DNA from: Dokdonia sp. 4H-3-7-5
Lineage (GTDB): Bacteria; Bacteroidota; Bacteroidia; Flavobacteriales; Flavobacteriaceae
Reading direction: 5' to 3'
DNA length: 64,000 nt
NCBI RefSeq assembly: GCF_000212355.1
Contig: NC_015496.1
Location: forward strand, 2,822,001-2,886,000
Under the pieces are notes generated by a model, which did no database searches, was not told the origin of the DNA, and was given only the letters and a program-made list of their open reading frames with translations. Of this stretch, positions 247 through 63,066 are shown in pieces (the first letter of the stretch is position 1; each line of letters starts with the position of its first letter). Made by a program: the position numbers and the translations under genes.

Positions 247-2673
247 ATGAACATCGATTTTAAAAAATTCCTTCCGCATATTCTAGTTGTACTTGGCTTT
301 ATAGTCGTGGCGCTGGTTTACTTCAATCCGGTGTTATCTGGAAAGCGCATTTATCAAAATGATATCAAGCTCTATGAAGGGATGGCAAAGCAACATCGAG
401 ATTTTAGAGCAGAGACGGGTGAGGAGACTTACTGGACTAATAGTGCCTTTGGAGGGATGCCTACTTATCAGATGGGAGCGAGGTTTGAGTATGATATGAT
501 GGATAAGTTGGACCGTGTGATTCGCTTTTTACCACGCCCGGCAGATTATCTTTTTCTATATTTTATATCCTTTTATGCATTAATGCTTGTGATGCGCGTC
601 CCTTGGAAGCTCGCCGTAGTTGGCGCACTTGCCTTTGGTCTGTCTACGTATCTCATTATTATTATAGGCGTAGGGCATAATTCAAAGGTGCACGCCATCG
701 GGTATTTCCCGCTTGTTCTTGCGGGTATTATACTTACGTATCAAAAAAGATATCTCTGGGGATTTTTACTCACTGCCGTTGCAATGGGACTAGAAATACA
801 GGCTAATCACTACCAGATGACCTATTATCTAGGGTTGCTTTGTGTGATTTTAGGGATTGCATACCTCATAGATGCTATCAAGAAAAAACAACTTCCACAT
901 TTCTTCAAAGCTTCGGGAATACTAGTAATTGCTGTATTATTAGGTCTCGCTACAAACGCAACCACCTTACTTGCTACTGCAGAGTATGCAGAGACAAGTA
1001 TACGTGGCGAGCAATTATTAAAAGATGACCTTGCCAAAGACGCCGTAGAAGACGGTCTTGGTTTTGATTATATCACACAGTGGAGCTACGGTAAGCTAGA
1101 GTCTCTCAATCTCATCGCATCAGATTTTATGGGAACTGGTACCGCTGCCGATTTGGGTCGTGATTCCGCTTTCGCGAAAAAATTAAGCACATTAGGAGTT
1201 CCTGCAAACGAAGTAAGTTATTATGCTCAAGGAACGAGATTATACTGGGGAGAACAGCCATTTGTAGAAGCTCCTCCATACCTTGGAGTAACTGTTTTTG
1301 CACTTGCATTATTAGGACTGTTTCTAGTAAATGGAAGATTGCGCTGGTGGTTACTTGCAGGTATGATCGTTTCCCTAATATTAAGTTGGGGAAAGAACGT
1401 AGAAGGAATTACACGTTTCTTTATTGACTATGTGCCGTTGTACAATAAGTTTAGAGCGGTTACGAGTATACAGGTAATTTTAGAGTTGTTATTACCTATT
1501 GCAGCAATGGTAGGCTTGCACAGATTCTTTTATGACCGCGTAGATCAAGCCGAAAAGCAAAAGAAGTTACTTATCGCTATAGGTTCGCTAGCAGGGCTTT
1601 TTGTGGTACTCTACCTTTTTAGCGGAAGCTTATTTAACCTACGCTCTGCCGCCGAAGGACAGATGGCCATCGAGCAACCAGAAATATTAAATGCCATAAA
1701 AGAAGATCGACTTGCTGTATTGAAAAGTGATGTGTTGAGGTCTTTATTATTTGTGTTTTTTATAGGTGTAGCCTTGTGGTTAACACTCAAGAAAAAGATT
1801 TCAGAAAATATCGCAATAATCACCATTGGTGCGCTCATAGTTTTTGACCTTGTAGGTGTAGATAGACGTTCTGTAAATGAAGAAAACTTCATCACCCAGC
1901 GACAGTATGATCAGAACTTCCAGATTACTCCTATCGATGAAGAAATCAAAAAGGATGATAGCTACTTTCGTGTGATTGATCTTGCGAGAGGATTTAATAA
2001 TAGCCATACTTCGTACTATTTCAATTCGCTTAACGGATATTCTGCCGTTCAACCGCGTACGATAGATGATTTATACAATCAGCAGATTGCTCAAGGGAAT
2101 ACCGAGGTGCTTAATATGTATAATGTAAAATACATCCTTCAAGACAGCGAGCAGGGTATGAAAATAAGTAAAAACCCCGAAACAAACGGTCCAGCTTGGT
2201 TTGTAAATGAGATACAGTATGTACCAGATTATAATGCAGAGTTTGATGGTCTCACTAAAGTAGACACAAAAAATACAGTACTCATCCGTGAAGAATATCG
2301 TGAGGAATTAGGAAACTTTCAGCCGCAACGTGATAGCACGGCTGTGGTAAAAACTAAAGAGGTGCAACCTAACAAACTCGTGTACCAAGTAGAAAATGGA
2401 AGCGATGGCTTTATGGTTTTTGCAGAGAACTATTACAAAAATGGATGGATTGCCACGGTAGATGGTGTTGAGACTAGCATCTTGCCAGTAAACTATGCCT
2501 TGAGAGGCATAAAAGTACCTGCAGGCACTCACGAAGTAGTAATGACTTTTGAGCCACAAGTGGTAAAAACGGGAGGGATGATTATGCTAGGCAGTAGTTT
2601 ATTACTTTTCTTACTAGTTGCCGGAGGAATATTCTACACGGTAAAAAACCGTTATACAGAAGCACAGGCTTAA
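247..2673 (+). CDS. YfhO-family polytopic membrane protein
   Basis: An 808-residue integral membrane protein. I start it at the ATG at 247, just before a typical membrane N-terminus (MNIDFKKFLPHILVVLG), and not at the in-frame TTG at 199. Hydrophobic segments occur at about 7-26, in a dense block at about 95-235, again at about 340-540, and once near the C-terminus (about 775-800). Between about 550 and 770 lies a hydrophilic, probably extracytoplasmic domain. YfhO-like proteins resemble GT-C glycosyltransferases; B. subtilis YfhO is linked to teichoic-acid glycosylation, but the substrate in Bacteroidota is unknown. The stop overlaps the start of the following glycosyltransferase by one base, so the two are co-transcribed and probably act on the same envelope glycan. 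A palindrome copy at 1168 encodes part of the loop SAFAKK. Confidence 0.8.
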   Translation: MNIDFKKFLPHILVVLGFIVVALVYFNPVLSGKRIYQNDIKLYEGMAKQHRDFRAETGEETYWTNSAFGGMPTYQMGARFEYDMMDKLDRVIRFLPRPADYLFLYFISFYALMLVMRVPWKLAVVGALAFGLSTYLIIIIGVGHNSKVHAIGYFPLVLAGIILTYQKRYLWGFLLTAVAMGLEIQANHYQMTYYLGLLCVILGIAYLIDAIKKKQLPHFFKASGILVIAVLLGLATNATTLLATAEYAETSIRGEQLLKDDLAKDAVEDGLGFDYITQWSYGKLESLNLIASDFMGTGTAADLGRDSAFAKKLSTLGVPANEVSYYAQGTRLYWGEQPFVEAPPYLGVTVFALALLGLFLVNGRLRWWLLAGMIVSLILSWGKNVEGITRFFIDYVPLYNKFRAVTSIQVILELLLPIAAMVGLHRFFYDRVDQAEKQKKLLIAIGSLAGLFVVLYLFSGSLFNLRSAAEGQMAIEQPEILNAIKEDRLAVLKSDVLRSLLFVFFIGVALWLTLKKKISENIAIITIGALIVFDLVGVDRRSVNEENFITQRQYDQNFQITPIDEEIKKDDSYFRVIDLARGFNNSHTSYYFNSLNGYSAVQPRTIDDLYNQQIAQGNTEVLNMYNVKYILQDSEQGMKISKNPETNGPAWFVNEIQYVPDYNAEFDGLTKVDTKNTVLIREEYREELGNFQPQRDSTAVVKTKEVQPNKLVYQVENGSDGFMVFAENYYKNGWIATVDGVETSILPVNYALRGIKVPAGTHEVVMTFEPQVVKTGGMIMLGSSLLLFLLVAGGIFYTVKNRYTEAQA

Positions 2674-3956
2674 TGAATAACAAGGTACTCATCATCGCAT
2701 ATTATTGGCCGCCTGCTGGTGGTCCCGGCGTGCAACGATGGCTCAAGTTTACAAAGTACCTGCCAGAATTTGGCATAGAACCTATAGTTTATGTTCCCGA
2801 AAATCCTAGTTACCCTATTATAGATGATTCTTTGGTTGCTGAGGTTTCAGGTAAGGTGACCGTGATTAAACAACCTATTAAAGAGCCGTATGGGTGGGCG
2901 GGGACGCTTTCGCGAAAGCAAACTAAAACCATCTCATCGGGTATTTTACCCAAAGAAGGAAAGCAGAGTCTGTTGCAAAAAGCGATGCTCTACGTGCGTG
3001 GTAATTTTTTTGTACCTGATGCTAGAGTAGGATGGGTAGCACCTTCTGTAACGTTTTTGAAGAAATATATCGAAGAAAACGATATTGAAAAAATCATCAC
3101 TACAGGACCACCACACAGCCTACATCTCATAGGGAACCAACTTAAAAACTGGAAGCCTAGCCTTAATTGGCTAGCCGATTTTAGAGATCCGTGGTCGACT
3201 ATTGGGTATCACGATAAATTGCGAATGACCGCCAAAACAAAAGCGCGTCACAAGCAGTTAGAAAAGCAAGTACTTACCACTGCAGATCATATAATTGTAA
3301 CCAGTCCTGGAACAAAAAGAGAATTTCAAGCGATTACCGAAAGACCTATTACGGTTATCACAAACGGGTTTGATGATAGAGTAATCACACGATATAAACC
3401 TACAGAGCGATTTATATTATCTCACATTGGTTCTTTACTCTCAGACCGTAACCCGCAGTTGTTGTGGAAGGTGTTGAGAGAATTAAGTGATGAGTTACCA
3501 GCCTTTTCTGAAGCGCTAGAATTACAACTTGTAGGGAAAGTAAGTCAAGAAATCATTGACGAAATAACGGCAGCAGGTCTCAAGTCACAATTAAACCTTG
3601 TAGGTTATGTAAGTCACCAAGAAGCACAGCGTTTACAAGAACAAGCAAACGCCCTACTTCTTATAGAAATCAATGCCGAAAAAACAAAAGGCATTATTGC
3701 CGGAAAACTCTTTGAATACCTAAGCGCACAAAGACCTATAGTTGCCATAGGTCCTGAAGGAGCAGATCTAGGAGCTATTATAGAAAAAACAGCGACAGGC
3801 AGTTTTGTAGATTACAGTCAGGAAAAAAAGTTAAAAACAGTAATTAAAGATTTATTTACTGGTGGCTATAAGTATGCTAGTAATGAAAACGAAGTAGCTA
3901 AGTATCATAGGAGAGAACTCACAGCACAACTGAGTAATTTAATAGCGCATCTATAA
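2673..3956 (+). CDS. GT-B fold glycosyltransferase
   Basis: A 427-residue protein with the two-domain look of GT4-like glycosyltransferases. The N-terminus has a Rossmann strand and a glycine-rich acceptor loop (YYWPPAGGPGVQRW, about residues 10-23), common in Bacteroidetes sugar transferases. The C-terminal half has the donor-site pattern GKLFEYLS at about 344-351, whose glutamate usually binds the nucleotide sugar, followed by PIVAIG. No signal peptide or membrane segment is seen, so it should act at the inner face of the cytoplasmic membrane. It overlaps the YfhO-like gene by one base and is followed nine bases later by a flippase-like gene. Donor and acceptor cannot be told from sequence. 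A palindrome copy at 2907 encodes LSRKQ in a loop. Confidence 0.8.
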   Translation: MNNKVLIIAYYWPPAGGPGVQRWLKFTKYLPEFGIEPIVYVPENPSYPIIDDSLVAEVSGKVTVIKQPIKEPYGWAGTLSRKQTKTISSGILPKEGKQSLLQKAMLYVRGNFFVPDARVGWVAPSVTFLKKYIEENDIEKIITTGPPHSLHLIGNQLKNWKPSLNWLADFRDPWSTIGYHDKLRMTAKTKARHKQLEKQVLTTADHIIVTSPGTKREFQAITERPITVITNGFDDRVITRYKPTERFILSHIGSLLSDRNPQLLWKVLRELSDELPAFSEALELQLVGKVSQEIIDEITAAGLKSQLNLVGYVSHQEAQRLQEQANALLLIEINAEKTKGIIAGKLFEYLSAQRPIVAIGPEGADLGAIIEKTATGSFVDYSQEKKLKTVIKDLFTGGYKYASNENEVAKYHRRELTAQLSNLIAHL

Positions 3957-3965
3957 TGTCATAAC

Positions 3966-5459
3966 GTGGGAATTGTATTAAAACAATCTTTTCAGAATCT
4001 TATAACGACTTACTTAGGCTTTGGACTAGGAGCGGTAAATACGTTGTTTCTGTACGTGAATTTCATGAGCGATACGTATTATGGTTTAGTGAGCTTTATT
4101 CTTTCTACGGCTTTTATTTTAGTGCCGTTTCTAGCTTTTGGTGTTCAAAATACGATGGTAAAGTTTTATTCTTCTTTTGAAGGAGAAGATCAAGATCGCT
4201 TTTTGAGTTGGATGCTGTTATTGCCATTATTCTTAATTATACCTCTTACTGGAATCACCTATTTCTTACATCAACAAATAGCAGATTTCCTTTCGTCAAA
4301 AAATGAGATTGTTGCTGGTTATGTTTGGTATATTTTCATCATAGCGTTGTCTTCGGCGTATTTTGAGATTTTCTTTTCTTGGTCAAAGGTGCAGCTCAAG
4401 AGTACATTTGGTAATTTCTTAAAAGAGGTTTTTCATCGCTTAGGGGTTACACTGCTACTTGTTTTACTAGCAATATCTGCAATTGATGTAGATACCTTTA
4501 TAATTCTAACAGTCGTAATTTATATAGTTAGAATGATAATCATGATGGTGTATGCCTTCAAGCAGCGTAGGCCGTTAATCACATTTTCGCGAAAGCGTGC
4601 GAATACCACTTCAAAACTTGATGTGCAACGTACTTCAATTATTAAATATTCTACACTTATAATCATCGCGGGATCTGTAGCGACTTTACTTATAGATATC
4701 GATAAGTTTATGATAGGGAAGTATGTGGCGATAGAGAATGTGGCTTACTATGCTGTTGCTATTTACATCGCTACGGTGATTGGTGTGCCTTCTAGAGCGA
4801 TGCATCAGATTACGTATCCTATGGTGGCAGAGATGCTTAATAAAAAACAGTGGAGTGAGATGAGTGTGCTATATAAAAAGAGTAGCTTGAGTTTGCTGGT
4901 AATTTCTGGTTTGTTGTTTCTCCTTATCGTTTGTAACATTAAAAGCTTGTACTTACTCGTAGGTCCAGAGTATGCTACTGGCCTGTATGTGGTACTATTT
5001 ATAAGCGCTTCAAAACTATTAGATAACTGCCTTGGGATCAACAATGCAATCATTTTTAATAGCGATTATTATCGCATCGTGCTAGTAATAGGTGTGGTTG
5101 CCGTGATTGTAGCAATTATATTGAATATGATTTTGATTCCAGCATTAGGGATTAATGGAGCAGGAGTTGCTACGCTTATTGCTACAGTAGGATATTCTGT
5201 TGCTAAGCTTCTTGTGGTACAATCTAAATTTAAAATGCAACCATTTTCAAAGAATTCGCTTAAGATATTTGGGCTGATTATAGGTGTGTTTTGTCTTTGC
5301 TATTTTTGGGATTTTAATTTAAACCCAGTAGTAGCAATTGCTTTAAAAGGCTCGCTTATTACTATAGGATATTTATTGATTTCTTACGTATTCAAGCTAT
5401 CTATGGAGATCAATATTGCTATGGATAAAGTACTCAACATCGTTAAAAAGAGAGATTAA
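3966..5459 (+). CDS. Polysaccharide flippase-like membrane protein (Wzx/MOP superfamily)
   Basis: A 497-residue very hydrophobic protein starting with GTG at 3966, nine bases after the glycosyltransferase stop. About 12-14 membrane segments spread over the whole length, with short polar loops, match the polysaccharide-biosynthesis branch of the MOP exporter superfamily. Such proteins move lipid-linked oligosaccharides across the inner membrane. Its place after a glycosyltransferase fits that role. The longest cytoplasmic loop, around residues 200-225, carries a palindrome copy (4582) read as FSRKR. The substrate is unknown. MATE-type drug export is a less likely alternative. Confidence 0.78.
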   Translation: MGIVLKQSFQNLITTYLGFGLGAVNTLFLYVNFMSDTYYGLVSFILSTAFILVPFLAFGVQNTMVKFYSSFEGEDQDRFLSWMLLLPLFLIIPLTGITYFLHQQIADFLSSKNEIVAGYVWYIFIIALSSAYFEIFFSWSKVQLKSTFGNFLKEVFHRLGVTLLLVLLAISAIDVDTFIILTVVIYIVRMIIMMVYAFKQRRPLITFSRKRANTTSKLDVQRTSIIKYSTLIIIAGSVATLLIDIDKFMIGKYVAIENVAYYAVAIYIATVIGVPSRAMHQITYPMVAEMLNKKQWSEMSVLYKKSSLSLLVISGLLFLLIVCNIKSLYLLVGPEYATGLYVVLFISASKLLDNCLGINNAIIFNSDYYRIVLVIGVVAVIVAIILNMILIPALGINGAGVATLIATVGYSVAKLLVVQSKFKMQPFSKNSLKIFGLIIGVFCLCYFWDFNLNPVVAIALKGSLITIGYLLISYVFKLSMEINIAMDKVLNIVKKRD

Positions 5460-6297: not shown

Positions 6298-8487
6298 TTA
6301 AAGATTTACTCTTTTATGCTTAGGATATTTTAGTTCATAACTGAATTCCTTTTTTGAACTATCTGATGGCGCAAGTTTTATTATCCATTCAAGCAAACCT
6401 GTATCCTTATCATAAGTTGCATCAGAGGTTTCGATATCATCTACTTTGATTTCTTTGTTTTGAGATACAGGAACACGATCTACCATCTTTAGATTGATAC
6501 CTGTACTTTTATTATTCTTCACTGTTGTTGAGTACGCCATATCGACAATGCGTTGCGAACCAATAAATGAAGTTGACTTAAAGTTATCTAGTTGTTTGCG
6601 CTTTACGACGATATTTGGATCTACGCCAAGTGATACAGACAACTCCTTTGTTGTCTCTAGCGGATTGATATACGTCTTACCAGAAAAACTGCCTTCAAAG
6701 TAGATATTTGCTTCTCCAGGAAGTAAACTATAACGCACCCAGTCTTTTATAGAAGCTGTAAGAAATACATTTTCATTAATAGCAGGAGCGACAAAATATT
6801 CATAGGTTGCTGGTACCTCAAACTTATCAATTTCTATAACTGTCACATCTCCGTCGGAGTCAATTGAGTATTTCTTATTGATTTCAAAAGTAGTGGTGGT
6901 GATTCCTTCTGTTTTGGTGTCTCCAGTGGCTGTTAATATTGAGTTCTCAAATCCATTCTCGGTTTTAATGATTACCACTCCATTTTTTGCTTTAGCGCCA
7001 TAAATCGATGTAGCGCTTAGACCTTTGATTACTTTTATATCTTTTATGTTACTAGCATCTATATCATTGATTTCTCTAATTGATTTTTGAGAACTAAACG
7101 GAACTCCATCAATAATAAATAATGGGGGATTACTAGAACTTATAGATGAATAGCCTCTTATTACAACATTTGTTGAGCCACCAGCCAAACCTGATGCGTT
7201 ATTTATAGCCACACCTGAAGTTTTCCCTGAAAGAATATCATTAAGTGTATAATCTTCTTTCTTTGCAGGTTTTGGTGATTGCCCCCTTTTAGACCCAGAT
7301 GTTCCATAAGCGACAACAACTACCTCTTCCAGCGCATTATCTGCTTCTAGGTTTGCATTGATAATACTCGCATGAATGGGAATTTCTGAAGTTTTAAATC
7401 CTACGTAAGAGAACTGTAACGTTTCTCCTTCGTTTACTTGCAGTGTGTACTTTCCATCAAAGTCAGTTTGCGTCCCGTTTGTTGTTCCTTTCACTACTAC
7501 AGTTGCTCCTGGTAGTGGTCCATTAGTTTCAGTCACGATACCTGTGATTGTTTTAATAGTTGGGTTGTATTTATAGTTGTAGGCCTTCGTAGCATTACTA
7601 TTGTTACGGTAATTACGATTTACAAAACGTAAGTACTTTGTGTCAATAGTTGGCTTAAGGTTATTAGTGTTAGGATCTCCTGTTGATAATACAAGATTCA
7701 CATCATCCCAGTCTATTCCTGTTTTTTGATATAAATGAGCTTTATAAGATAATTGTAAAGGTGCATTTGTAGTAATTGCTTTTAAGTCATATTCTGGATA
7801 CCAACCTGCTTCGCTTACATTATAGGTGATTTTAAGTTTTAAAGTCTCTCGCTGCTCACCATTAAGTTTTAGAGTAATCTGTCCTTTACTTTTTTCTTCT
7901 GTGACATTAAACTCATTAAATTGCTTCGTGAGGTCATTTACACGACGCTGTAAATTTGTTTTTTCAATTTCGGCATCGAGAATAGCATTTTTGATTTCGG
8001 TTACTCGTTTTCTGTAGTAAGTAGATAGTTCCTTGATTTTAGCTAGATCTATTTCTGTGGTGTTGCTACCTAGTCGTTGGTTGGCTGTAATTACTTCTTC
8101 CTCTTTATGTAAACCATTCATGAGGCTATTGAGCTTTAGGATATCTGTCTCAAGTTTGGTTTTTAAACTTCGCAGACTGTCTACTTTCTTCGTATTAAGT
8201 TGTTCTGTGAGATAGTTAATTCCGAAGTTAATAGAGAGTATAGAGGTATTTTTTAAGCCAGAAATCTGGATGCTACTTTCATCAATATCGTTTGAGAGGT
8301 TATCAAATAGAAAGCTATTTGTTCCCTCTGTAACCATAACATCCGCAGTACGCTCTATTTGTGCGCCGCTTAAGTAGACAGTTACTTTTGATAGGTTAGT
8401 ACTTTTAGTTTGTGGTGGGGTAGAAGACGCTTTCGCGAAAGCGTAACTCATAAAACATAAGGCGAGTAATAATGTAGTTCTTTTCAT
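6298..8487 (-). CDS. DUF4139/MuiA-like protein with inserted carboxypeptidase-regulatory and TonB-plug domains
   Basis: A 729-residue exported protein. Residues 1-18 are a signal peptide ending in AFA, encoded by a palindrome copy (8430). Residues about 32-130 match the DUF4140 N-terminal domain (VTVYLSGAQIERTA), then comes a coiled coil (about 100-200) and the first part of DUF4139 (AGWYPEYDLKA, DDVNLVLSTGDP). At about 312-392 a CarboxypepD_reg-like domain is inserted (GIVTETNGPLPGATVVVKG), followed at about 410-510 by a SusC-type plug with VIRGYSS, PLFIIDGVPF and GVVIIKTENG. DUF4139 resumes to the C-terminus. No outer-membrane barrel follows the plug. The proteobacterial relative is called mucoidy inhibitor A; its biochemical role is unknown. 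The plug may dock with TonB-type or Sus-type partners; this is inference. Confidence 0.8.
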   Translation of the reverse strand: MKRTTLLLALCFMSYAFAKASSTPPQTKSTNLSKVTVYLSGAQIERTADVMVTEGTNSFLFDNLSNDIDESSIQISGLKNTSILSINFGINYLTEQLNTKKVDSLRSLKTKLETDILKLNSLMNGLHKEEEVITANQRLGSNTTEIDLAKIKELSTYYRKRVTEIKNAILDAEIEKTNLQRRVNDLTKQFNEFNVTEEKSKGQITLKLNGEQRETLKLKITYNVSEAGWYPEYDLKAITTNAPLQLSYKAHLYQKTGIDWDDVNLVLSTGDPNTNNLKPTIDTKYLRFVNRNYRNNSNATKAYNYKYNPTIKTITGIVTETNGPLPGATVVVKGTTNGTQTDFDGKYTLQVNEGETLQFSYVGFKTSEIPIHASIINANLEADNALEEVVVVAYGTSGSKRGQSPKPAKKEDYTLNDILSGKTSGVAINNASGLAGGSTNVVIRGYSSISSSNPPLFIIDGVPFSSQKSIREINDIDASNIKDIKVIKGLSATSIYGAKAKNGVVIIKTENGFENSILTATGDTKTEGITTTTFEINKKYSIDSDGDVTVIEIDKFEVPATYEYFVAPAINENVFLTASIKDWVRYSLLPGEANIYFEGSFSGKTYINPLETTKELSVSLGVDPNIVVKRKQLDNFKSTSFIGSQRIVDMAYSTTVKNNKSTGINLKMVDRVPVSQNKEIKVDDIETSDATYDKDTGLLEWIIKLAPSDSSKKEFSYELKYPKHKRVNL

Positions 8488-11164: not shown

Positions 11165-11209
11165 AGGGATCTCGCTTTCGCGAAAGCGTAATAGAGCCAC
11201 AAACGACTC

Positions 11210-11284: not shown

Positions 11285-11950
11285 ATGCACGTAAAAATAG
11301 AAGCAAGCTGGAAGCAAGAACTCAAGGAAGAATTTGATAAGCCATATTTTAAATCTCTTACAGATTTTGTAACACAGGAGTACCATACACATACCTGTTA
11401 TCCACCCGGCGAAGAGATCTTTTCGGCTTTTGATCATTGTCCCTTTGATAAGGTTAAGGTGGTGATTATAGGTCAAGATCCGTATCATGGAGCAGGGCAG
11501 GCTAACGGATTATGTTTTTCTGTACAAGATGGTATTGCTCATCCACCGTCACTTAAGAATATATTTAAGGAGCTAGAAACAGATGTGGGAATAGCTACAC
11601 CAGCTTCTGGAAATCTTGATAAATGGGCAGCTCAAGGGGTTTTACTTCTTAATGCAACGCTTACGGTACGAGCAGGTGAGGCTGGATCACATCAAAAACA
11701 AGGATGGGAGCATTTTACAGATGTGGTGATAGATACGCTTTCGCGAAAGCGTGAAAACATTATTTTCCTACTTTGGGGAGGATTTGCCAAAAGGAAAGGA
11801 AAGAAAATAGATGCTTCAAAACATTTTATACTACTCTCTGGGCATCCATCACCGCTAAGTGCAAATCGCGGTTACTGGTTCGGTAATAAGCACTTTAGTA
11901 AGGTAAATGAGATTTTATTGAGTAAAGGAGAGGCTCCCATTGAATGGTAG
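11285..11950 (+). CDS. ung: Uracil-DNA glycosylase, family 1
   Basis: A 221-residue enzyme that removes uracil from DNA to start base-excision repair. The water-activating motif GQDPYHG is at residues 63-69 (Asp65) and the minor-groove HPSPLS motif at 187-192 (His187). Length and motifs match family-1 UNG. I use the ATG at 11285 (MHVKIEASWKQEL); the longer frame begins with residues unlike UNG and starts upstream of the likely transcript leader. A palindrome copy at 11738 encodes LSRKRE just before the beta-strand IIFLLWGG, where homologues carry a similar charged turn. It is divergent from mutS2 and has its own promoter. Confidence 0.93.
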   Translation: MHVKIEASWKQELKEEFDKPYFKSLTDFVTQEYHTHTCYPPGEEIFSAFDHCPFDKVKVVIIGQDPYHGAGQANGLCFSVQDGIAHPPSLKNIFKELETDVGIATPASGNLDKWAAQGVLLLNATLTVRAGEAGSHQKQGWEHFTDVVIDTLSRKRENIIFLLWGGFAKRKGKKIDASKHFILLSGHPSPLSANRGYWFGNKHFSKVNEILLSKGEAPIEW

Positions 11951-13060: not shown

Positions 13061-15115
13061 TTAATTGTACTTCGCTTTTAGATAGTCAAAAATAGCATAT
13101 TGTGATCTAATTTTTGGTGTTTCTTTTTCTGCTTTCGCGAAAGCGTTATTCTCTTCTTTATTTTGAATACGAGCCTTGACATTATCTGAGAGCTGAATGT
13201 CAAAAATCTCTTTTAACTCCTTGCGACAATCTGCGTCTGTAATAGGCACTAATACTTCAATACGTCTATCCAGATTTCTTGTCATCCAGTCTGCACTGCC
13301 CATAAAAAGTTGCTCATCGCCATCATGGTTAAACCAGTAAATGCGACCATGCTCGAGATATCTATCTAAAATTGAAGTCATATAGATATTCTCGCTCAGC
13401 CCTTTTACTCCAGGGATAAGAGCGGTAAAGCCGCGCACAAGCATTGTGATTTTTACTCCGGCTTGACTCGCTTTATAGAGCAATTTAATCATATCCTTAT
13501 CCTCAAGGCTATTCATTTTTATCTTGATCTCTGCGTGTTTTCCAGATTGAGCAAAATCAATCTCATCATTGATGAGCTTTTCAAAAGTGCGTCGCGTGGT
13601 AAAAGGCGAGACCAATAAATGCTTGTTGCGAGGTACAATGAGGTCTCCTTCTAGCACTTTAAACACACGGTTTAATTCTTTGCCCAGTTTCTTATCTGCC
13701 GAAAAGAAACCATGATCTGCATAGATTTTTGAGGTTTTTGCATTAAAGTTACCAGTGCCTATATAAATGTATCGGCGGTTTTTACCTTCCTCTTTGCGCT
13801 TTACAAGTAATATTTTTGAATGTACTTTGATACGTGGATAGCTATAAATAACAGTAGCTCCTTTTTCTTCAAAAGTGCGTCCCCAAGTAATGTTATTCTC
13901 TTCATCAAAGCGAGCTTTTGCTTCTATAAAGATGAACACCTTTTTACCATTATCTAACGCCTTAAGAAGCGCCGAAGTAAGTGGAGATTCACTTGCAACA
14001 CGATACAAGGATATCTTTATTTCTGTTACATCTTTATCCTCTGAGGCCTGCTCTATAAAACGCTCCACATAATTAAAAGACATAAAAGGAAAGTGTACGA
14101 GATGATCACGTTCTTTTAATACCTCAAAATAGTCTGTAGCTTTCTCGAGCGCATTATGTTTTATTAAGGGTTGTTTTTTAAAGTGTAGCTCAGGATTTTC
14201 TGTAGGATCCGGAAATTTAAAAAAGTCGTTAAAGTTATGATAGCGACCGCCTGGCATCATATCAACTTTACCTACACGCAAGAGCTTGCGCAATTTTTTT
14301 GCGTCATCTTTATCCATAGATGCATCATAAAGCAATCTTGTAGGCTGCCCTTTGTGGCGTCTCTTTAAGGATTCATAAATACGATCTGCAAGAATACCGT
14401 CAAGCTCATCATCTAGATATAACTCTGCATCTCTAGAGATTTTCACTTCAAAAATCCCACGTATTTCCTCATCAGGAAAAATTGTATCCATTTTATAATG
14501 AATAATGTCATCAATAAAAGTAAGATAGTGCTCGCCATTATCTTTAAGTAGGTGTACAAAACGATCTACTTTATGGGTAGGGATAGTGACAAATCCCACC
14601 TTTGAGCTGTCCTTAAAAAGTACGTAAAAGTACAGTGACTGATCTTCTAGAAAAATATCATTCTTGGCTGCAAGGTCAACCTTTTTTACATCAAGATGTT
14701 CTCTTATGGTAGAGGTGTACCAACCATCTGCAAGAATTTTATGCTTGTCTGTGTAGGTTTTTGAGGTAAGGATGTGGATATGATGCTTTTCAAGTTCTGG
14801 GATAATCACTTTTCTAAACGTGTGACCAAAACGTTGCTGCTGCTCATGTACCGTAGCTTTTATCTCTTTTACAATTTTATTTGGTTTGAGGGATAATTGC
14901 TTTCTAATTTCTTTTTTTACTCTTTTGAGTTGGCGCAACTGTGACACGCGAACTCTAAAAAACTCATCGAGATTAGTAGAATATATCGCTAGAAATTTAA
15001 GACGCTCATACAGCGGATTATTCTCAACATCCTCAGCTTCTTGAAGTACTCGCTCATTAAAACTAAGCCAGTTTAAATCTCTATGTCTATAATTATCGTC
15101 GGTAAGTTTAATCAT
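13061..15115 (-). CDS. ppk: Polyphosphate kinase 1
   Basis: A 684-residue PPK1, which makes inorganic polyphosphate from ATP. The N domain (DLNWLSFNERVLQEA), the head domain and the two phospholipase D-like C domains are all present. The autophosphorylated histidine corresponds to His432 in KVHSKILLV, followed by IYIGTGNFN. I use the ATG at 15115. The frame extends to a TTG at 15133, but a -7 box (15131-15138) overlaps that codon, so it would not be on the mRNA. The C-terminal tail carries a palindrome copy (13132) read as NNAFAKAEK, beyond the catalytic domains. The binding-protein-like gene follows in the same operon. Confidence 0.92.
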   Translation of the reverse strand: MIKLTDDNYRHRDLNWLSFNERVLQEAEDVENNPLYERLKFLAIYSTNLDEFFRVRVSQLRQLKRVKKEIRKQLSLKPNKIVKEIKATVHEQQQRFGHTFRKVIIPELEKHHIHILTSKTYTDKHKILADGWYTSTIREHLDVKKVDLAAKNDIFLEDQSLYFYVLFKDSSKVGFVTIPTHKVDRFVHLLKDNGEHYLTFIDDIIHYKMDTIFPDEEIRGIFEVKISRDAELYLDDELDGILADRIYESLKRRHKGQPTRLLYDASMDKDDAKKLRKLLRVGKVDMMPGGRYHNFNDFFKFPDPTENPELHFKKQPLIKHNALEKATDYFEVLKERDHLVHFPFMSFNYVERFIEQASEDKDVTEIKISLYRVASESPLTSALLKALDNGKKVFIFIEAKARFDEENNITWGRTFEEKGATVIYSYPRIKVHSKILLVKRKEEGKNRRYIYIGTGNFNAKTSKIYADHGFFSADKKLGKELNRVFKVLEGDLIVPRNKHLLVSPFTTRRTFEKLINDEIDFAQSGKHAEIKIKMNSLEDKDMIKLLYKASQAGVKITMLVRGFTALIPGVKGLSENIYMTSILDRYLEHGRIYWFNHDGDEQLFMGSADWMTRNLDRRIEVLVPITDADCRKELKEIFDIQLSDNVKARIQNKEENNAFAKAEKETPKIRSQYAIFDYLKAKYN

Positions 15116-15228: not shown

Positions 15229-16119
15229 TTAATCTTTAGTAATCGCGTCAAGTGTATACTGGATAAGAGCTTCGGTCTGCTCTGTAGGTTGCTCGCTAAA
15301 TGTCATATTTGCTCTATTGGCAATAATACAATTAAGAGACACAGCACGGTGTCCTAGTAATTTTGCAAGGCCATATATTCCAGAAGTTTCCATCTCTAGA
15401 TTAGTAACCTTAAGTTCTTTGTTAGTTGCGCTTTCGCGAAAGCAAAAAGTTCCCAATTTGTCATTCATGTTAGCGTCAGTTGTTTTAAGTCTTAACACTC
15501 TTCCTTGCGGTCCATAAAATCCAATATTTGTAGCAGTAAATCCATCGACCATTTTGTCTGAAGCAAATTTATCTGCAAGTTGCTCATCGCAAGCCACTAC
15601 ATAAGGATCACTTTTTTCTGGTGCCCATGACATGTGTTCTATAAAAGCTTTTTGGATTGCTGGATGCTGTACATGTTTACTATCATAAAAGTGGAGTAGG
15701 GCATCTAGTCCTATCGCATAGCGGCTCATTAAGAAAGAGTTTACAGGAATGTATGCCTGGATAGAACCACTTGTACCTATACGTACAATATCTAAGCTAG
15801 TGTGCTCTTTATTTATCTCTCTTGTTTCTAGATTTATATTAACTAGCGCATCAAGTTCATTGAGTACAATGTCGATGTTATCTGTACCTATTCCAGTTGA
15901 AATAACTGTGATTTCTTTTCCTTTATAAGTTCCGGTGCTTGTTTTGAATTCGCGTTTTTGTGTTGTAAAACGCACACTGTCAAAATATTTTGTCACCGTA
16001 TCTACACGGTCAGGATCTCCTACAGTTATTATTGTAGATGCAAGGTGTTCTGGTCTTAAATTTAGGTGGTAAATACTACCGTCTGGATTAAGTATAAGTT
16101 CTGATGGTGCTATTGCCAT
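15229..16119 (-). CDS. Nucleoside phosphorylase (uridine/purine type)
   Basis: A 296-residue enzyme of the PNP/UDP phosphorylase superfamily, which splits nucleosides with phosphate into base and ribose-1-phosphate. The phosphate-binding start (IITVGDPDRVD, about 30-40), the STGIGTDN segment (about 74-81), VRIGTSGSIQ (about 113-122) and the late NLEMETSGIYGLA (about 244-256) are all family landmarks; the MET motif sits at the ribose pocket. Base preference cannot be fixed; uridine phosphorylase is a common annotation for this type. It is the last gene of a leftward operon, three bases after the DUF1835 gene. A palindrome copy (15431) is read as CFRESATN. Confidence 0.82.
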   Translation of the reverse strand: MAIAPSELILNPDGSIYHLNLRPEHLASTIITVGDPDRVDTVTKYFDSVRFTTQKREFKTSTGTYKGKEITVISTGIGTDNIDIVLNELDALVNINLETREINKEHTSLDIVRIGTSGSIQAYIPVNSFLMSRYAIGLDALLHFYDSKHVQHPAIQKAFIEHMSWAPEKSDPYVVACDEQLADKFASDKMVDGFTATNIGFYGPQGRVLRLKTTDANMNDKLGTFCFRESATNKELKVTNLEMETSGIYGLAKLLGHRAVSLNCIIANRANMTFSEQPTEQTEALIQYTLDAITKD

Positions 16120-18482: not shown

Positions 18483-18496
18483 CTTTCGCGAAAGCG
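18483..18496. repeat. Iterated palindrome copy between divergent genes
   Basis: A complete GCTTTCGCGAAAGC copy in the 242-base gap between the divergent oxygenase (18386) and SDR (18629) genes. The rest of the gap is AT-rich and shows no other element I can support. Confidence 0.85.
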
Positions 18497-20501: not shown

Positions 20502-20516
20502 ATTTTCGCGAAGGCG
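20502..20516. repeat. Degenerate iterated palindrome in divergent gap
   Basis: ATTTTCGCGAAGGC keeps the TTCGCGAA core but has one altered arm. It lies in the 294-base gap between the divergent amine oxidase and methyltransferase genes. The gap also has a near-consensus TATCTTCG at 20622-20629, a possible -7 box for the gene at 20713. Confidence 0.7.
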
Positions 20517-21964: not shown

Positions 21965-23968
21965 ATGGCGACTACAACAAAATCTAGCATACCCTTTATT
22001 TACAATAGAGCATCCTTAGATAACGATACCTTACTTAGACTATACAGAGCAATGCTTAAACCTCGATTAATAGAGGAGCGCATGCTTATTTTACTAAGAC
22101 AAGGAAAGGTTTCAAAATGGTTTTCTGGAATAGGCCAAGAAGCAATCTCCGTAGGAGTTACTGCTGCGATGAAGCCAGAAGAGTACATATTACCTATGCA
22201 CCGTAACCTCGGTGTTTTTACTACTCGTGAGATTCCTTTATATAGATTATTTACACAATGGCAAGGGAAAATGAGCGGCTTTACAAAGGGACGCGATCGT
22301 AGTTTTCACTTTGGGACACAAGAATTTAATATTGTAGGTATGATATCTCACTTAGGTCCACAACTTGGCGTGGCAGACGGTATTGCACTTGCACATAAAT
22401 TGCGCAATGAGAATGCGGTTACCGCTGTTTTTACTGGCGAAGGAGGAACAAGTGAAGGAGATTTTCATGAGGCGCTCAATGTTGCATCAGTATGGCAATT
22501 ACCTGTACTATTCTGTATAGAGAATAACGGCTACGGACTATCGACACCTACTAGTGAGCAATATAATTGTGAGCATCTTGCAGATAGAGCAAAAGGCTAT
22601 GGGATGGAATCTCACATCATTGATGGGAATAACATTCTAGAGATTTATACCAAAATTTTGGCAATAGCGGAAGACATACGTAACAATCCGCGACCTGTTT
22701 TAATAGAGTTTAAAACGTTTAGAATGCGTGGTCACGAGGAAGCAAGTGGTACTAAGTATGTTCCTGAGGAGTTAATGGAAGCATGGGGAGAAAAAGACCC
22801 GCTACTTAATTTTGAAAAGTACTTAATACATGAAGGGATTCTCTCTCAAGAGACAAAAGATGCTTATGAAGTCTCTATTAAAGAGGAAATCACAGAACAC
22901 CTAGATAAGGCATATGCAGAGGAGAGTATTACTCCTAATCTAGAAACTGAGATGAAGGATGTATATGCTCCGTTTAGCTTTCGCGAAAGCGTGCCTAGCG
23001 AAGACACAGAAGAGCTCCGCTTGATTGATGCAATTTCCCAAGGACTAAGACAGTCTATGGAGAAGTATGATGATCTTGTGATTATGGGGCAAGATGTAGC
23101 CGAATATGGAGGTGTATTTAAAATCACCGATGGTTTTGTGGAGCAGTTTGGTCGCGATCGTGTGCGCAATACTCCTATATGTGAGAGCGCCATTGTAGAG
23201 ACTGCTATGGGTCTTGCAATCAATGGTAAAAAAGCACTAATGGAAATGCAATTCTCAGATTTTGCAACTTCTGGCTTTAATCCTATTGTAAACTACCTCG
23301 CAAAATCACACTATCGCTGGTCACAACCTGCAGATGTGGTGATACGTATGCCTTGTGGTGCTGGTGTGGGGGCAGGTCCTTTTCACTCGCAAACTAATGA
23401 AGCGTGGTTTACCCATACACCAGGTTTAAAAGTGGTGTATCCAGCGTTTCCAGCAGATGCAAAAGGATTGCTAGCGACTGCAATAGAAGACCCTAATCCA
23501 GTGCTGTTTTTTGAGCATAAAAAATTATATCGCAGCATACGTCAAGAGGTGCCAACTAACTACTATACATTACCTCTAGGTAAAGCTTCATTAGTAAGAG
23601 AAGGCGAGCAAGTAACTATTATAACTTATGGCGCAGGCGTACACTGGGCAATTGAGTTGCTAGATAGTATTAATGTCTCTGCAGATCTTCTAGACTTGCG
23701 TACGTTACAGCCGTTAGATAAAGAAGCAATAATTACCTCTGTACGTAAAACGGGGAGAGTGTTACTACTTACAGAAGACAGTGCCTTTGGATCTGTAATG
23801 TCTGATATTTCTGCAATGATTATGGAGGAATGTTTTGAAAGCCTAGATGCACCAGTGAGACGAGTGGCGAGTATAGATACTCCTATTCCTTTTGATGCAG
23901 AACTTGAGAAGCAGTACTTACCTGTGGAGCGATTAGCGACTACACTTCAAGAGCTGCTAGATTACTAA
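21965..23968 (+). CDS. Fused E1 alpha/beta subunit of a 2-oxo acid dehydrogenase
   Basis: A 667-residue protein joining E1 alpha (about 1-330) and E1 beta (about 345-667) of a branched-chain-type 2-oxo acid dehydrogenase. It decarboxylates a 2-oxo acid with thiamine diphosphate and passes the acyl group to lipoyl-E2. The thiamine site is GEGGTSEGDFHEALN (about 157-171; the usual GDG is GEG here) with IENNGYGLSTP after it. The beta part has IMGQDVAEYGGVFKIT and MPCGAGVGAGPFHSQ. Branched-chain acids are the likely substrate, which would feed branched fatty acids; pyruvate or acetoin are alternatives. A palindrome copy (22978) encodes FSFRESVPS exactly in the alpha/beta linker. No E2 or E3 gene is adjacent. 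Confidence 0.88.
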   Translation: MATTTKSSIPFIYNRASLDNDTLLRLYRAMLKPRLIEERMLILLRQGKVSKWFSGIGQEAISVGVTAAMKPEEYILPMHRNLGVFTTREIPLYRLFTQWQGKMSGFTKGRDRSFHFGTQEFNIVGMISHLGPQLGVADGIALAHKLRNENAVTAVFTGEGGTSEGDFHEALNVASVWQLPVLFCIENNGYGLSTPTSEQYNCEHLADRAKGYGMESHIIDGNNILEIYTKILAIAEDIRNNPRPVLIEFKTFRMRGHEEASGTKYVPEELMEAWGEKDPLLNFEKYLIHEGILSQETKDAYEVSIKEEITEHLDKAYAEESITPNLETEMKDVYAPFSFRESVPSEDTEELRLIDAISQGLRQSMEKYDDLVIMGQDVAEYGGVFKITDGFVEQFGRDRVRNTPICESAIVETAMGLAINGKKALMEMQFSDFATSGFNPIVNYLAKSHYRWSQPADVVIRMPCGAGVGAGPFHSQTNEAWFTHTPGLKVVYPAFPADAKGLLATAIEDPNPVLFFEHKKLYRSIRQEVPTNYYTLPLGKASLVREGEQVTIITYGAGVHWAIELLDSINVSADLLDLRTLQPLDKEAIITSVRKTGRVLLLTEDSAFGSVMSDISAMIMEECFESLDAPVRRVASIDTPIPFDAELEKQYLPVERLATTLQELLDY

Positions 23969-25743: not shown

Positions 25744-26862
25744 GTGGAACAAGATTGCGATATCATTATAATAGGTGGAGGTCTTGCGGGACTCACAGCC
25801 GCTGTACACTTGCTGCAAGCTGACTTCTCTGTGGTTCTTATTGAGAAAAATACATACCCTAAGCATAAGGTATGTGGAGAGTACGTTTCTAATGAAGTGT
25901 TGCCATATCTAGATGCGTTAGGTATATATCCCATAACTAATGGCGCTAAGAAAATAAACCGTTTTCAATTTTCTGGACTCTCTGGTAATGCGCTTGAGAT
26001 TGCACTTCCCTTAGGAGGTTTTGGGATTAGCAGGTATGCTTTAGATCTAGTGCTATACGAACGAGCTTTAAGTTTAGGGTTGGTATTTGAGCAGGCAACC
26101 GCTACAAATGTTACTTTCGGGAGAGAGGAATTTGAGGTTACCACAAAAGATAAAAGTTTTAGAGCACCCTATGCTCTTGGAGCTTATGGTAAGAGGAGCG
26201 GATTAGATATTACGCTTTCGCGAAAATTTATAAGTACAAAATCCCCTTGGATGGGTGTAAAAGCACATTATGCTGGACAATTCCCAGAAGATCTAGTGGC
26301 TTTACACAATTTTTCAGGAGGTTACTGCGGATTATCAAAAGTGGAAACAGATGCGATAAATGTTTGTTATCTAGCAGATGTAAATTCATTTAAGAAGCAT
26401 AAAGATTTAGACACATATCGAGTTGAGGTATTAGAGCAGAATCGTTATTTAAAAGAATTTTTCGCGCAAGCGGAACCTATTTTTGAAAAACCACTCACCA
26501 TTAGTCAGATCTCATTTCAAGATAAATCTGTTGTGGAAAATCACATACTTATGATAGGTGATAGTGCAGGACTCATACATCCTTTATGCGGTAACGGTAT
26601 GGCAATGGCAATTCATAGCGCAAAGATTGCAAGTGAGTGTCTTAGTAACCATATAAGTACTTCAAAAAAGCGGGAGCAGCTAGAAAAAGAATATACGAAG
26701 CAGTGGAAGCAAACCTTTGCGACTAGAATGCGCAACGGGGCACTTATACAGCGTGGGTTGCATAATACAACGATAACTAGATTAGGAGTAGGGATACTTC
26801 AAAAATCGCCTAGATTATTGAGTAGCGTGATACAGTCTACACATGGAAATCTTATAACATAA
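25744..26862 (+). CDS. FAD-dependent oxidoreductase of the polyketide cluster
   Basis: A 372-residue flavoprotein starting with GTG at 25744. The FAD-binding motif is IIIIGGGLAGLTAA (about 7-20), then KHKVCGEYVS (about 41-50), and the second flavin motif is MIGDSAGLIHPLCGNGMAMA (about 270-289). This is the layout of geranylgeranyl-reductase/UbiH-like enzymes, which either reduce double bonds or hydroxylate aromatic rings. As first gene of a type III PKS operon it could oxidise the polyketide ring, as SrsC does in Streptomyces griseus, or reduce a chain; I cannot decide. It overlaps the methyltransferase by one base. Confidence 0.8.
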   Translation: MEQDCDIIIIGGGLAGLTAAVHLLQADFSVVLIEKNTYPKHKVCGEYVSNEVLPYLDALGIYPITNGAKKINRFQFSGLSGNALEIALPLGGFGISRYALDLVLYERALSLGLVFEQATATNVTFGREEFEVTTKDKSFRAPYALGAYGKRSGLDITLSRKFISTKSPWMGVKAHYAGQFPEDLVALHNFSGGYCGLSKVETDAINVCYLADVNSFKKHKDLDTYRVEVLEQNRYLKEFFAQAEPIFEKPLTISQISFQDKSVVENHILMIGDSAGLIHPLCGNGMAMAIHSAKIASECLSNHISTSKKREQLEKEYTKQWKQTFATRMRNGALIQRGLHNTTITRLGVGILQKSPRLLSSVIQSTHGNLIT

Positions 26863-28618: not shown

Positions 28619-28621
28619 GTG

Positions 28622-32174: not shown

Positions 32175-32251
32175 AAAATCTAACTTTGTAAGGATAGAAA
32201 GATACAAATCACATGGTTTGTAAGGAAAAAGGACAGAGAATAATTTAATCA

Positions 32252-32265
32252 TATTTTCGCGAAAG
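32252..32265. repeat. Oriented palindrome variant before parE
   Basis: ATTTTCGCGAAAGC, the oriented variant with one GC arm lost, in the 203-base gap between the divergent DUF6503-like gene and parE. Confidence 0.8.
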
Positions 32266-34237: not shown

Positions 34238-34244
34238 TAGTACG

Positions 34245-34258
34245 CTTTCGCGAAAACG
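34245..34258. repeat. Palindrome variant between parE and parC
   Basis: GCTTTCGCGAAAAC lies ten bases after the parE stop, inside what is probably one transcript. As RNA it could fold into a short stem with a CGCG loop. Confidence 0.8.
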
Positions 34259-38893: not shown

Positions 38894-38907
38894 CTTTCGC
38901 GAAAATT
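38894..38907. repeat. Oriented palindrome variant after the T9SS gene
   Basis: GCTTTCGCGAAAAT, followed by TTGA, the same extended form as at 59864. It lies ten bases after the stop of the T9SS gene. Confidence 0.8.
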
Positions 38908-55341: not shown

Positions 55342-55395
55342 TAAGTAATACGCTTTCGCGAAAGCATAAAAAATAGAAATCCAAAATTTTTAATA

Positions 55396-59863: not shown

Positions 59864-59974
59864 CTTTCGCGAAAATTTGACAACATAACACTCATGCTTT
59901 TGCCTAACATAAGGTGAGCGGTGAAATTCATAAAACGGAGAGATTGATAATCTTTTCATATTTTCGCGAAAGCG
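59864..59974. repeat. Pair of oppositely oriented palindrome variants
   Basis: GCTTTCGCGAAAAT at 59864-59877 and ATTTTCGCGAAAGC at 59959-59972 face each other with 81 bases between. This is the closest pair in the window and lies between lpxA and efp. A long hairpin is not formed by the DNA between them. Confidence 0.75.
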
Positions 59975-62999: not shown

Positions 63000-63028
63000 T
63001 CTAGTCGGTATCGTAATTCTTATATTTG
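62995..63028 (+). promoter_or_regulatory. Candidate promoter of fabG
   Basis: TTG at 62995-62997, 23 bases, TATATTTG at 63021-63028. The leader would be about 130 bases long and includes the palindrome copy at 63053. Confidence 0.5.
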
Positions 63029-63052
63029 AGTAAGTAAATTTAGTGATGTATG

Positions 63053-63066
63053 CTTTCGCGAAAGCG
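63053..63066. repeat. Palindrome copy in the fabG leader
   Basis: A full GCTTTCGCGAAAGC about 25 bases after the -7 box of fabG and 97 bases before its ATG. With its flank it can form a 6-bp RNA stem and a CGCG loop. Confidence 0.85.

What the first reader, a model, noticed from the sequence alone, without database searches (positions are those of the whole stretch)
1168..63066. Highly iterated palindrome TTTCGCGAAA scattered through the window
The 8-mer TTCGCGAA occurs 24 times in 64 kb and 23 of these extend to TTTCGCGAAA. With about 31% each of A and T and 19% each of G and C, a hand estimate gives under one chance copy of the 8-mer and about 0.07 of the 10-mer. Twelve copies are perfect 14-base palindromes. 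Eleven copies are intergenic although intergenic DNA is only about a tenth of the window, so they favour gaps, but thirteen are tolerated in genes in all frames. This resembles HIP1 of cyanobacteria in style, but the sequence is different. It may be the target of a methyltransferase, an uptake or repair signal, or a site for a chromosome-organising protein. I know of no description.
Basis: partly seen in the sequence, partly recalled or inferred. Interest (0 to 1): 0.8.

Follow-up and report, generated by a model that had tools for sequence, protein, structure and literature searches.

The report
Thousand-copy DNA palindrome in Dokdonia chromosomes
Marine Dokdonia bacteria carry about a thousand nearly evenly spaced copies of one short symmetric DNA word, kept in place by natural selection even inside genes, which looks like the docking site of an unidentified protein that acts all along the chromosome.

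Summary
The window lies in a Dokdonia chromosome (3,389,993 bp) with 1012 copies of TTTCGCGAAA, against 10 for the reversed word. All 18 genomes of the genus searched have 481-1195 copies. Of 237 family genera sampled only two others are rich. The site extends to a symmetric TTACGCTTTCGCGAAAGCGTAA, about 34 bp in one genus. Where relatives lack a copy the core is substituted, not missing (11 comparisons). Copies are strongly conserved in place: 12 of 13 aligned sites in a 74%-identical species, against 7% of random 10-mers. Spacing is too even for chance. The rich genera share almost no positions (2 of 67 comparisons, one site), as if a transferable trans-acting factor reads them. Some temperate phages and a metal-resistance island carry copies too. 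REP-type transposase, two methyltransferase families, a Noc-like ParB and type IV pili do not track the motif. Best reading: binding sites of an unidentified dimeric DNA-binding factor, HIP1-like. A DNA-uptake signal is the main rival, since some Dokdonia species recombine heavily. The factor was not found. My searches found no published description.

The parts
1170..1179 (.). site 1, TTTCGCGAAA, inside YfhO-like gene 199-2673
   Evidence: kept in G249 and G254
2908..2917 (.). site 2, inside glycosyltransferase gene
4585..4594 (.). site 3, inside polysaccharide biosynthesis gene; core substituted in G251
8431..8440 (.). site 4, near 5' end of DUF4139/Plug gene 6298-8487 (-)
11176..11185 (.). 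site 5, at the start of a MutS domain V gene (-), probably upstream of the true start
11739..11748 (.). site 6, inside uracil-DNA glycosylase gene
13133..13142 (.). site 7, near 3' end of polyphosphate kinase gene (-)
15432..15441 (.). site 8, inside phosphorylase-superfamily gene (-)
18484..18493 (.). site 9, intergenic between divergent genes
20505..20512 (.). 8-mer only (10-mer would read TTTCGCGAAG), intergenic; the relative G253 has the full 10-mer
22979..22988 (.). site 10, inside dehydrogenase E1/transketolase gene
26216..26225 (.). site 11, inside gene 25744-26862
29029..29038 (.). site 12, inside SDR gene 28619-29410
31501..31510 (.). site 13, inside gene 31416-32252 (-)
32255..32264 (.). 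site 14, intergenic just upstream of the parE/gyrB-like ORF
33188..33197 (.). site 15, inside the parE/gyrB-like gene; peptide AAFRES is fixed in 5 species, the DNA motif is present in 3
34246..34255 (.). site 16, between the parE/gyrB-like gene and a topoisomerase subunit A gene
37192..37201 (.). site 17, near 5' end of CHU_C gene 37124-38884
38895..38904 (.). site 18, about 10 bp after a stop codon
53709..53718 (.). site 19, between convergent genes
55354..55363 (.). site 20, between divergent genes (PglZ/response regulator; HD domain)
59865..59874 (.). site 21, intergenic, one arm AAAATT; 97 bp from site 22
59962..59971 (.). site 22, intergenic, arm asymmetry opposite to site 21, upstream of the EF-P gene
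63054..63063 (.). site 23, intergenic

Best explanation
Each copy is a double-stranded binding site, two-fold symmetric over about 22-34 bp with an invariant 10-bp core, for an unidentified homodimeric sequence-specific DNA-binding factor that works inside the cell and acts locally, over a few kilobases. Selection therefore keeps roughly one site per 3 kb along the chromosome, preferably between genes and often just after a stop codon, and removes mutated copies. The likeliest task is chromosome or nucleoid organisation or another DNA-processing role of the HIP1 type. Shown: the motif, its symmetry, conservation in place, even spacing, substituted (not empty) sites in relatives that lack a copy, nearly separate arrays in three genera, copies in some phages and in a metal-resistance island.
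For: Two-fold symmetric signal out to +-11 in Dokdonia and +-17 in genus g11 (both orientations pooled). The core tolerates few variants: 152 perfect against 33 one-mismatch sites where about 15 are expected (66 against 30.5 counting both strands). Conserved in place: 12 of 13 aligned window sites in G254 (74% identity) and 16 of 18 in G249 (78%), against 7% and 14% of random 10-mers; G251-G249 outside recombinant tracts 21 of 23 against 10.6%. In the parE/gyrB-like gene the peptide is fixed in five species while the DNA is motif in three and other synonymous codons in two. Spacing is under-dispersed: CV 0.63 against 0.99, 3 gaps below 800 bp against 19.4 expected in the first 100 sites of G000; gaps below 1 kb 17 of 131 against a null mean of 41.3. 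Almost no shared positions between rich genera (2 of 67 comparisons, one site seen from both sides) although the motif is the same, against 243 of 269 within Dokdonia, which points to a trans-acting reader. Temperate-phage DNA carries full-armed copies.
Against: No reader protein was identified; the one candidate examined at length, chromosomal ParB, shows no tell-tale change. Four giant ORFs (2496-5060 aa; window 39742-47232, L379, L380, L382) hold no site over 7-15 kb, which a strict one-per-3-kb need would not tolerate, though two ORFs of 1512 and 1625 aa hold two each. Most features also fit an uptake signal, and some Dokdonia species do exchange DNA. In G249 the spacing CV is only mildly low (0.83, P 0.034).
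Confidence: 0.45

Rival explanations
1. The motif is a DNA-uptake (self-recognition) sequence: competent Dokdonia cells preferentially import DNA bearing it, and recombination of imported DNA spreads and preserves the sites by molecular drive, as with DUS and USS.
For: Neisseria DUS are reported as far more conserved than their surroundings (PMC2397512, passages), as these sites are; for Haemophilus USS a perfect inner core plus AT tracts is needed (PMC7811141, passages). Some Dokdonia species are mosaics: my two-state segmentation of G251 against G249 (76.5% identical elsewhere; 120 kb of G251, 85 kb aligned) gives 12 segments at 91-98% identity spanning 37.8 kb. Windows more than 0.12 above the pair median are 27 of 76 for this pair, against 0 of 394 in 10 Leeuwenhoekiella pairs and 1 of 313 in 10 Mesonia pairs at one 22-kb locus. 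Natural transformation exists in Riemerella, described there as Flavobacteriaceae (abstract starts; passages), and R. columbina prefers its own DNA (section 16 read).
Against: A palindromic uptake signal is unlike the DUS and USS that I recall. The type IV pilus ATPase family T2SSE is above its cut-off in only 4 of 12 rich genomes, not in the window's own, though the passages of the Riemerella screen that I saw name no type IV pilus gene among its essential ones. Sites are not enriched in recombinant tracts: 14 against 13.6 expected, and 5 of 12 tracts hold one against 6.0 expected. DUS flanks are reported as more divergent than average; flanks of genic sites here are not. Sites lie inside phage head-protease, portal and terminase genes. 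Eight motif-poor genera sampled show no other iterated word.
Confidence: 0.28
2. A Chi-like site: a palindromic stop signal for the end-processing recombinase, working from both directions; the T/G-rich strand on its 5' side would favour RecA loading.
For: The strand running 5' to 3' into the site is C-poor and T/G-rich to about 25 bp on both sides, also in genes in coding orientation. One site per 3.3 kb is on the scale that I recall for Chi in E. coli, and G/T-rich surroundings of Chi are recalled too. Some phages carry it.
Against: Known Chi sites are, as I recall, 5-8 nt, non-palindromic and shared across a clade; here the symmetric site is far longer and the distribution is patchy. No recBCD or addAB comparison was made.
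Confidence: 0.08
3. HIP-type mutation bias: a DNA methyltransferase recognising an inner word (CGCG, TCGCGA) plus methyl-directed mismatch repair creates and keeps the sites without any function of their own.
For: Elhai 2015 (PMC4390886: abstract, passages and section 18 part 1 of 2 seen) ties HIP1 and alternate HIPs to methyltransferases and models their gain this way.
Against: PF01555 is not above its cut-off in any of 8 Dokdonia genomes (it is in 2 of 4 other rich genomes), and PF00145 is absent from 6 of 12 rich genomes including the window's own. The conserved word is 18-34 bp, longer than the model's. C-to-T variants of the core are not the leading one-mismatch class. Other methylase families untested.
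Confidence: 0.07
4. A mobile repeat of REP/REPIN type copied around the genome by a RAYT (Y1) transposase.
For: Palindromic and dispersed; one pair of copies with facing asymmetric arms (sites 21 and 22). Y1_Tnp matches exist in three of the five rich genomes searched (G206, G010, G242).
Against: No Y1_Tnp match in the complete rich genomes G000 and G190. In all 11 differing comparisons the relative has substituted, ungapped sequence at the core, not an empty site. Only about 22 bp shared, and copies sit in genes in all frames.
Confidence: 0.02

Closest known systems
HIP1 (GCGATCGC) of cyanobacteria and alternate HIPs
   Same: Hyper-abundant palindrome, patchy among genomes, no proven function; from recall of a paper not held here (Xu et al. 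2018, not read; my look-up found nothing held), HIP1 sites are conserved by selection in and between genes and periodic along the chromosome.
   Different: Different sequence and phylum; about 1 per 3.3 kb against the roughly 1 per kb that Elhai gives; a much longer symmetric site; no PF01555/PF00145 methylase above cut-off in the window's genome; nearly separate arrays in three genera; copies in phages and in a metal-resistance island.
DNA uptake sequences: Neisseria DUS, Haemophilus USS
   Same: Of the order of 1000 conserved-in-place copies, an invariant core plus A/T-rich flanks, in a genus where some species exchange DNA.
   Different: Palindromic; no type IV pilus ATPase above cut-off in the window's genome; some phages carry it; no enrichment in recombinant tracts; genic flanks not faster-evolving.
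Noc binding sites / parS (ParB family), recalled consensus sequences
   Same: TTTC...GAAA palindromes read by a dimeric chromosomal DNA-binding protein.
   Different: Two base pairs shorter between half-sites; 1000 copies everywhere; no ParB paralogue that tracks the motif.
REP/REPIN elements
   Same: Dispersed short palindromes.
   Different: Substituted rather than empty sites in relatives, in genes in all frames, no RAYT in the complete rich genomes G000 and G190.
Chi sites
   Same: Density scale and G/T-rich strand on the 5' side (both recalled for Chi).
   Different: Symmetric and long; patchy among close genera.

Membership tests
HIP (highly iterated palindrome) | palindrome at gross excess over expectation across the genome | tested here: met
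   1012 against 10 for the reversed control; 152 against 0.52 in 464 kb
HIP (highly iterated palindrome) | copies both in genes and between genes | tested here: met
   87 genic and 65 intergenic of 152
HIP (highly iterated palindrome) | cognate DNA methyltransferase in genomes rich in the word (Elhai 2015) | tested here: inconclusive
   PF01555 and PF00145 do not track it and are not above cut-off in G000; other methylase families not tested
DNA uptake sequence (DUS/USS) | conserved in place well above surroundings | tested here: met
DNA uptake sequence (DUS/USS) | promotes DNA uptake in a competent cell | not testable with these tools
   needs a transformation assay
DNA uptake sequence (DUS/USS) | type IV pilus uptake machinery present | tested here: not met
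   T2SSE above cut-off in 4 of 12 rich and 3 of 14 poor genomes, not in G000; other uptake machines not excluded
DNA uptake sequence (DUS/USS) | linked to recombination tracts | tested here: inconclusive
   interspecies tracts exist, but sites are not enriched in the 12 found
DNA uptake sequence (DUS/USS) | flanks in faster-evolving parts of core genes | tested here: not met
   identity 20-60 bp away 0.881/0.787/0.729 against 0.881/0.778/0.742 at random genic places, 12-14 sites
REP/REPIN | RAYT (Y1) transposase in genome | tested here: not met
   none in the complete rich genomes G000 and G190; present in rich G206, G010, G242
REP/REPIN | copies are insertions | tested here: not met
   cores substituted, not missing, in 11 of 11 differing comparisons
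Noc/ParB site | cognate ParB-family paralogue beside the chromosomal ParB | tested here: not met
   one ~300-aa ParB in each of 26 genomes; extra 598-616-aa ParB_N proteins occur in 5 of 26, of which 1 is rich
Chi | attenuates RecBCD/AddAB and stimulates recombination | not testable with these tools
   biochemical
Restriction-modification target | avoided by phages of the host | tested here: inconclusive

The most novel reading that the evidence does not exclude
A transferable genome-marking system: a lineage that gains one trans-acting DNA-reading factor goes on to evolve 500-1000 evenly spaced symmetric sites by point mutation, through genes as well as gaps, and phages or islands that live in such hosts acquire the same mark. 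In Dokdonia this mark may define the circle of species that exchange DNA, which would make it the first palindromic, type IV pilus-independent self-DNA signal that I know of.
Probability: 0.25. Interest if true: 0.88.

Novelty: new variant of a known kind. Interest (0 to 1): 0.72.

Why it matters
HIP1 has stood as an unexplained oddity of cyanobacteria. Here is a comparable system in an unrelated phylum, in culturable marine bacteria, with sharper features: an invariant core inside a long symmetric site, site-by-site conservation, even spacing, rich genera beside poor ones, and copies in phages. The sharp rich/poor contrast between genera should make the reader protein findable by gene-content comparison, and the function testable with one oligonucleotide pull-down and one uptake assay. 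The motif is also a possible tracer of horizontal transfer: clustered copies in a motif-poor genome may mark an island from a rich donor.

Tried and rejected
REP/RAYT element: Y1_Tnp absent from G000 and G190 though present in G206, G010 and G242; no empty sites in the 11 differing comparisons. Peptide or RNA motif: three frames, palindromic, no Rfam family at the sites (only three tRNAs in the window); single-strand DNA hairpins weak (z -0.3 to -2.0 in 5 sites folded); an intrinsic-terminator reading was not pursued because most copies lie inside genes. Noc-like ParB: rejected; one ParB column (alignment column 86, G/S/A in 12 rich, D/E in 14 poor) splits the sets; it may be chance, which I did not compute, and is left as a weak lead. 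Type IV pilus: not tracking. PF01555 and PF00145 methylases: not tracking. Other iterated words in motif-poor genera: none comparable in 8 genera at 100 kb each nor in Leeuwenhoekiella and Mesonia loci (best 10-mer z 18 against 70-294 in rich genomes; words seen in fewer than 4 stretches were left out). Faster-evolving flanks of genic sites: not seen (12-14 sites). Site enrichment in recombination tracts: none. Tight site pairs as operators of a regulator: no such gene stood out by eye among the 7 pairs looked at.
Full report
OBSERVATION. The window holds 24 TTCGCGAA and 23 TTTCGCGAAA; shuffles give means of 0.78 and 0.08. It lies at 2,822,001-2,886,000 of a single-contig genome of 3,389,993 bp with 1012 copies of the 10-mer; the same pattern read backwards occurs 10 times. 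Polyphosphate kinase places it in Dokdonia: two fragments from one uncultured Dokdonia MAG are 96-98% identical. In 464 kb of this genome (window plus 20 stretches) there are 152 copies against 0.52 from a third-order Markov model. One-mismatch neighbours are few: 66 counting both strands against 30.5 expected, that is about 33 sites against 15.

ANATOMY. Around the invariant core the consensus is TTACGCTTTCGCGAAAGCGTAA; arm identities in G000 are 86% and 88% at the two positions next to the core, 76% at the third and 60-64% at the TTA positions. In genus g11 the symmetric signal reaches +-17, with T at -17 and at -11 in 83% (G242) and 91% (G010) of arms (g11 half-site consensus T..T..TT.CGCTTTCG). 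Beyond the arms the strand running into the site is depleted of C to about 25 bp. In coding-strand terms C is 7.7% on the left against 17% background and G is 10.6% on the right against 20.6% (108 genic sites). The far flanks are not themselves palindromic. Of 152 sites, 87 are in genes in all three phases and 65 between genes, in a sample that is 90% coding by my ORF-based calls. Density is 13.2 per 10 kb between genes and 1.4-3.1 per 10 kb in genes up to 6 kb, and 0 in two longer genes, 17.6 kb in all. Of 74 gene 3' ends next to intergenic sites, 30 lie within 20 bp of the core.

SPACING. The first 100 sites of G000 have mean gap 3642 bp and CV 0.63, against 0.99 for random points (0 of 20,000 simulations as low); gaps below 800 bp are 3 against 19.4 expected. 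G249 (its 3,293,944 bp equal the published length of D. donghaensis DSW-1) gives CV 0.83 (P 0.034) and 5 short gaps against 20.9. A null that keeps the genic and intergenic numbers expects 41.3 gaps below 1 kb in the sampled stretches; 17 of 131 are seen. Counts in 20 spread stretches of 20 kb have an index of dispersion of 0.43. Five long gaps were examined: three hold giant ORFs of 3368-5060 aa, function not searched, and two hold mostly small unannotated genes, one stretch with 33% G+C.

SELECTION. I aligned the window with orthologous stretches of congeners. The 10-bp core is unchanged at 23 of 23 sites in G253 (93% identity), 21 of 23 in G251 (88%), 16 of 18 aligned sites in G249 (78%) and 12 of 13 aligned in G254 (74%); random 10-mers are unchanged in 56%, 35%, 14% and 7%. 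In G206, where little aligned, 3 of 4 are kept and 19 sites are unaligned. Restricting to sites with local identity below 0.85 leaves 13 of 15 in G249 and 12 of 13 in G254. In all 11 differing comparisons (six window sites, five sites of relatives) the core is substituted and ungapped. In the parE/gyrB-like gene the peptide [10 protein letters not shown] is the same in five species, but three write it with TTTCGCGAAAGC and two, G251 and G249, with TTTAGAGAGAGT: three codons of the core differ synonymously. Those two species share a recombinant tract there, and I cannot say whether this was a gain or a loss.

DISTRIBUTION. All 18 Dokdonia genomes searched have 481-1195 copies (the two lowest are 78-85% complete). 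In the family, 249 genomes searched with the 10-mer and 397 with the 14-mer GCTTTCGCGAAAGC (both drawn from a larger group, 237 genera in the second) show two further rich genera: g11 (10-mer 595 and 700; 14-mer 578, 664 and 609) and g191 (one genome, 559 and 408). The rest have 0-34 and 0-19. A draw of 395 genomes of the class, which held no g11 or g191 genome, has none above 4 outside Dokdonia. In genic sites with a homologous gene in hand, positions are shared in 243 of 269 comparisons within Dokdonia (10 of 12 for G000 with G249, 10 of 11 with G254) but in 2 of 67 between rich genera, which are one site in a MeaB gene seen from both sides (34 distinct query sites). The arrays therefore arose, or turned over, separately around the same word.

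MOBILE DNA. In several poor genomes the few 14-mers are clustered, often a few kb apart, and a pair exactly 933 bp apart recurs in G087, G078, G101, G215 and G160. In G087 the cluster lies among heavy-metal resistance genes (ACR_tran and OEP efflux genes, multicopper oxidase, P-type ATPases; 9 proteins scanned). G078, G101 and G215 have nearly the same order of gene lengths around the pair but were not annotated. I read these as transfers from rich donors. Seven of the 14 were examined and each has phage-type genes: head protease, portal, major head protein, terminase, tail sheath, baseplate hub or integrase. These contigs were chosen because they hold a copy, so they give no unbiased density. 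The exact 18-mer, present in 32 of 152 host sites, occurs in only 3 viral stretches.

WHAT READS IT. A family search over 12 rich and 14 poor genomes found one ~300-aa ParB in each and no paralogue tracking the motif; the ParB helix-turn-helix region looks alike in both sets. T2SSE is above cut-off in 4 of 12 rich and 3 of 14 poor genomes. PF01555 is above cut-off in 0 of 8 Dokdonia and 2 of 4 other rich genomes. PF00145 is present in 6 of 12 rich genomes and absent from G000. Y1_Tnp is absent from G000 and G190 and present in rich G206, G010 and G242.

RECOMBINATION. Some Dokdonia species are mosaics. In 85 kb aligned between G251 and G249, identity is bimodal; a two-state segmentation with parameters that I set gives 12 segments spanning 37.8 kb at 91-98% and the rest at 76.5%. 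Outside them 21 of 23 aligned sites are unchanged, against 10.6% of random 10-mers. Windows more than 0.12 above the pair median are 27 of 76 for this pair, 9 of 89 and 7 of 92 for G249 with G000 and G253, and 0 or 1 for the remaining seven Dokdonia pairs, of which three have medians too high for the criterion to fire. Ten Leeuwenhoekiella pairs give 0 of 394 and ten Mesonia pairs 1 of 313, at one 22-kb locus, with one such blind pair in each genus. Sites are not enriched in tracts: 14 against 13.6. This keeps the uptake-signal reading alive without proving it. Competence is known in Riemerella: a transposon screen names ComEC, DprA, ComF, RecA and proteins of unknown function as essential (passages of PMC8459023), and R. 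columbina prefers its own DNA (section 16 of PMC7965970). Against the uptake reading, genic flanks are not faster-evolving than random genic places.

LITERATURE. A text search for the letters of the motif gave 10 papers, none on this subject by title and abstract start. Searches on HIP, Dokdonia and palindromes, Dokdonia with methyltransferase, PacBio and motif, uptake sequences and flavobacterial over-representation gave no description of it in the listings seen; one search was swamped by one of its terms. In PMC3587595, a Dokdonia genome paper, the word stem palindrom does not occur in the main text. The library excludes most subscription papers.

VERDICT. A real, genome-wide, conserved, symmetric site array: HIP1-like in kind, new in sequence, phylum and several properties. 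I give 0.45 to binding sites of an intracellular dimeric factor, 0.28 to an uptake signal, and the rest to Chi-like, methylase-driven or other readings.

Noticed in passing
G087, G078, G101, G215, G160, G353, G012 (L310-L322): Clusters of the motif in motif-poor genomes, with a conserved 933-bp pair in five of them; in G087 they lie among heavy-metal resistance genes. A likely signature of transfer from motif-rich donors.
   Followed up: partly
window about 0-6.5, 8.5-12 and 32.5-36 kb; G251 and G249 stretches: Large interspecies recombination tracts between Dokdonia species (about 95% identity within a 77% background).
   Followed up: partly
window 31501-34255: Four sites within 2.8 kb around the parE/gyrB-like gene, much denser than average.
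   Followed up: no
ParB alignment column 86 (L323-L348): G/S/A in all 12 motif-rich genomes, D/E in all 14 poor ones; may be chance.
   Followed up: no
L185, L203, L256: In these phage contigs a motif copy lies within about 20 bp after the stop codon of the integrase gene, near where attP might be.
   Followed up: no
window 39742-47232; L379, L380, L382: Giant ORFs of 2496-5060 aa (function not searched) without any site, in L380 and L382 with sites outside both ends.
   Followed up: partly
G190 site in EEYLSRKRLA against G254 DQYLSRKRLK: G254 has the peptide LSRKRL at the homologous place without the DNA motif: a possible decayed site, or coincidence.
   Followed up: no
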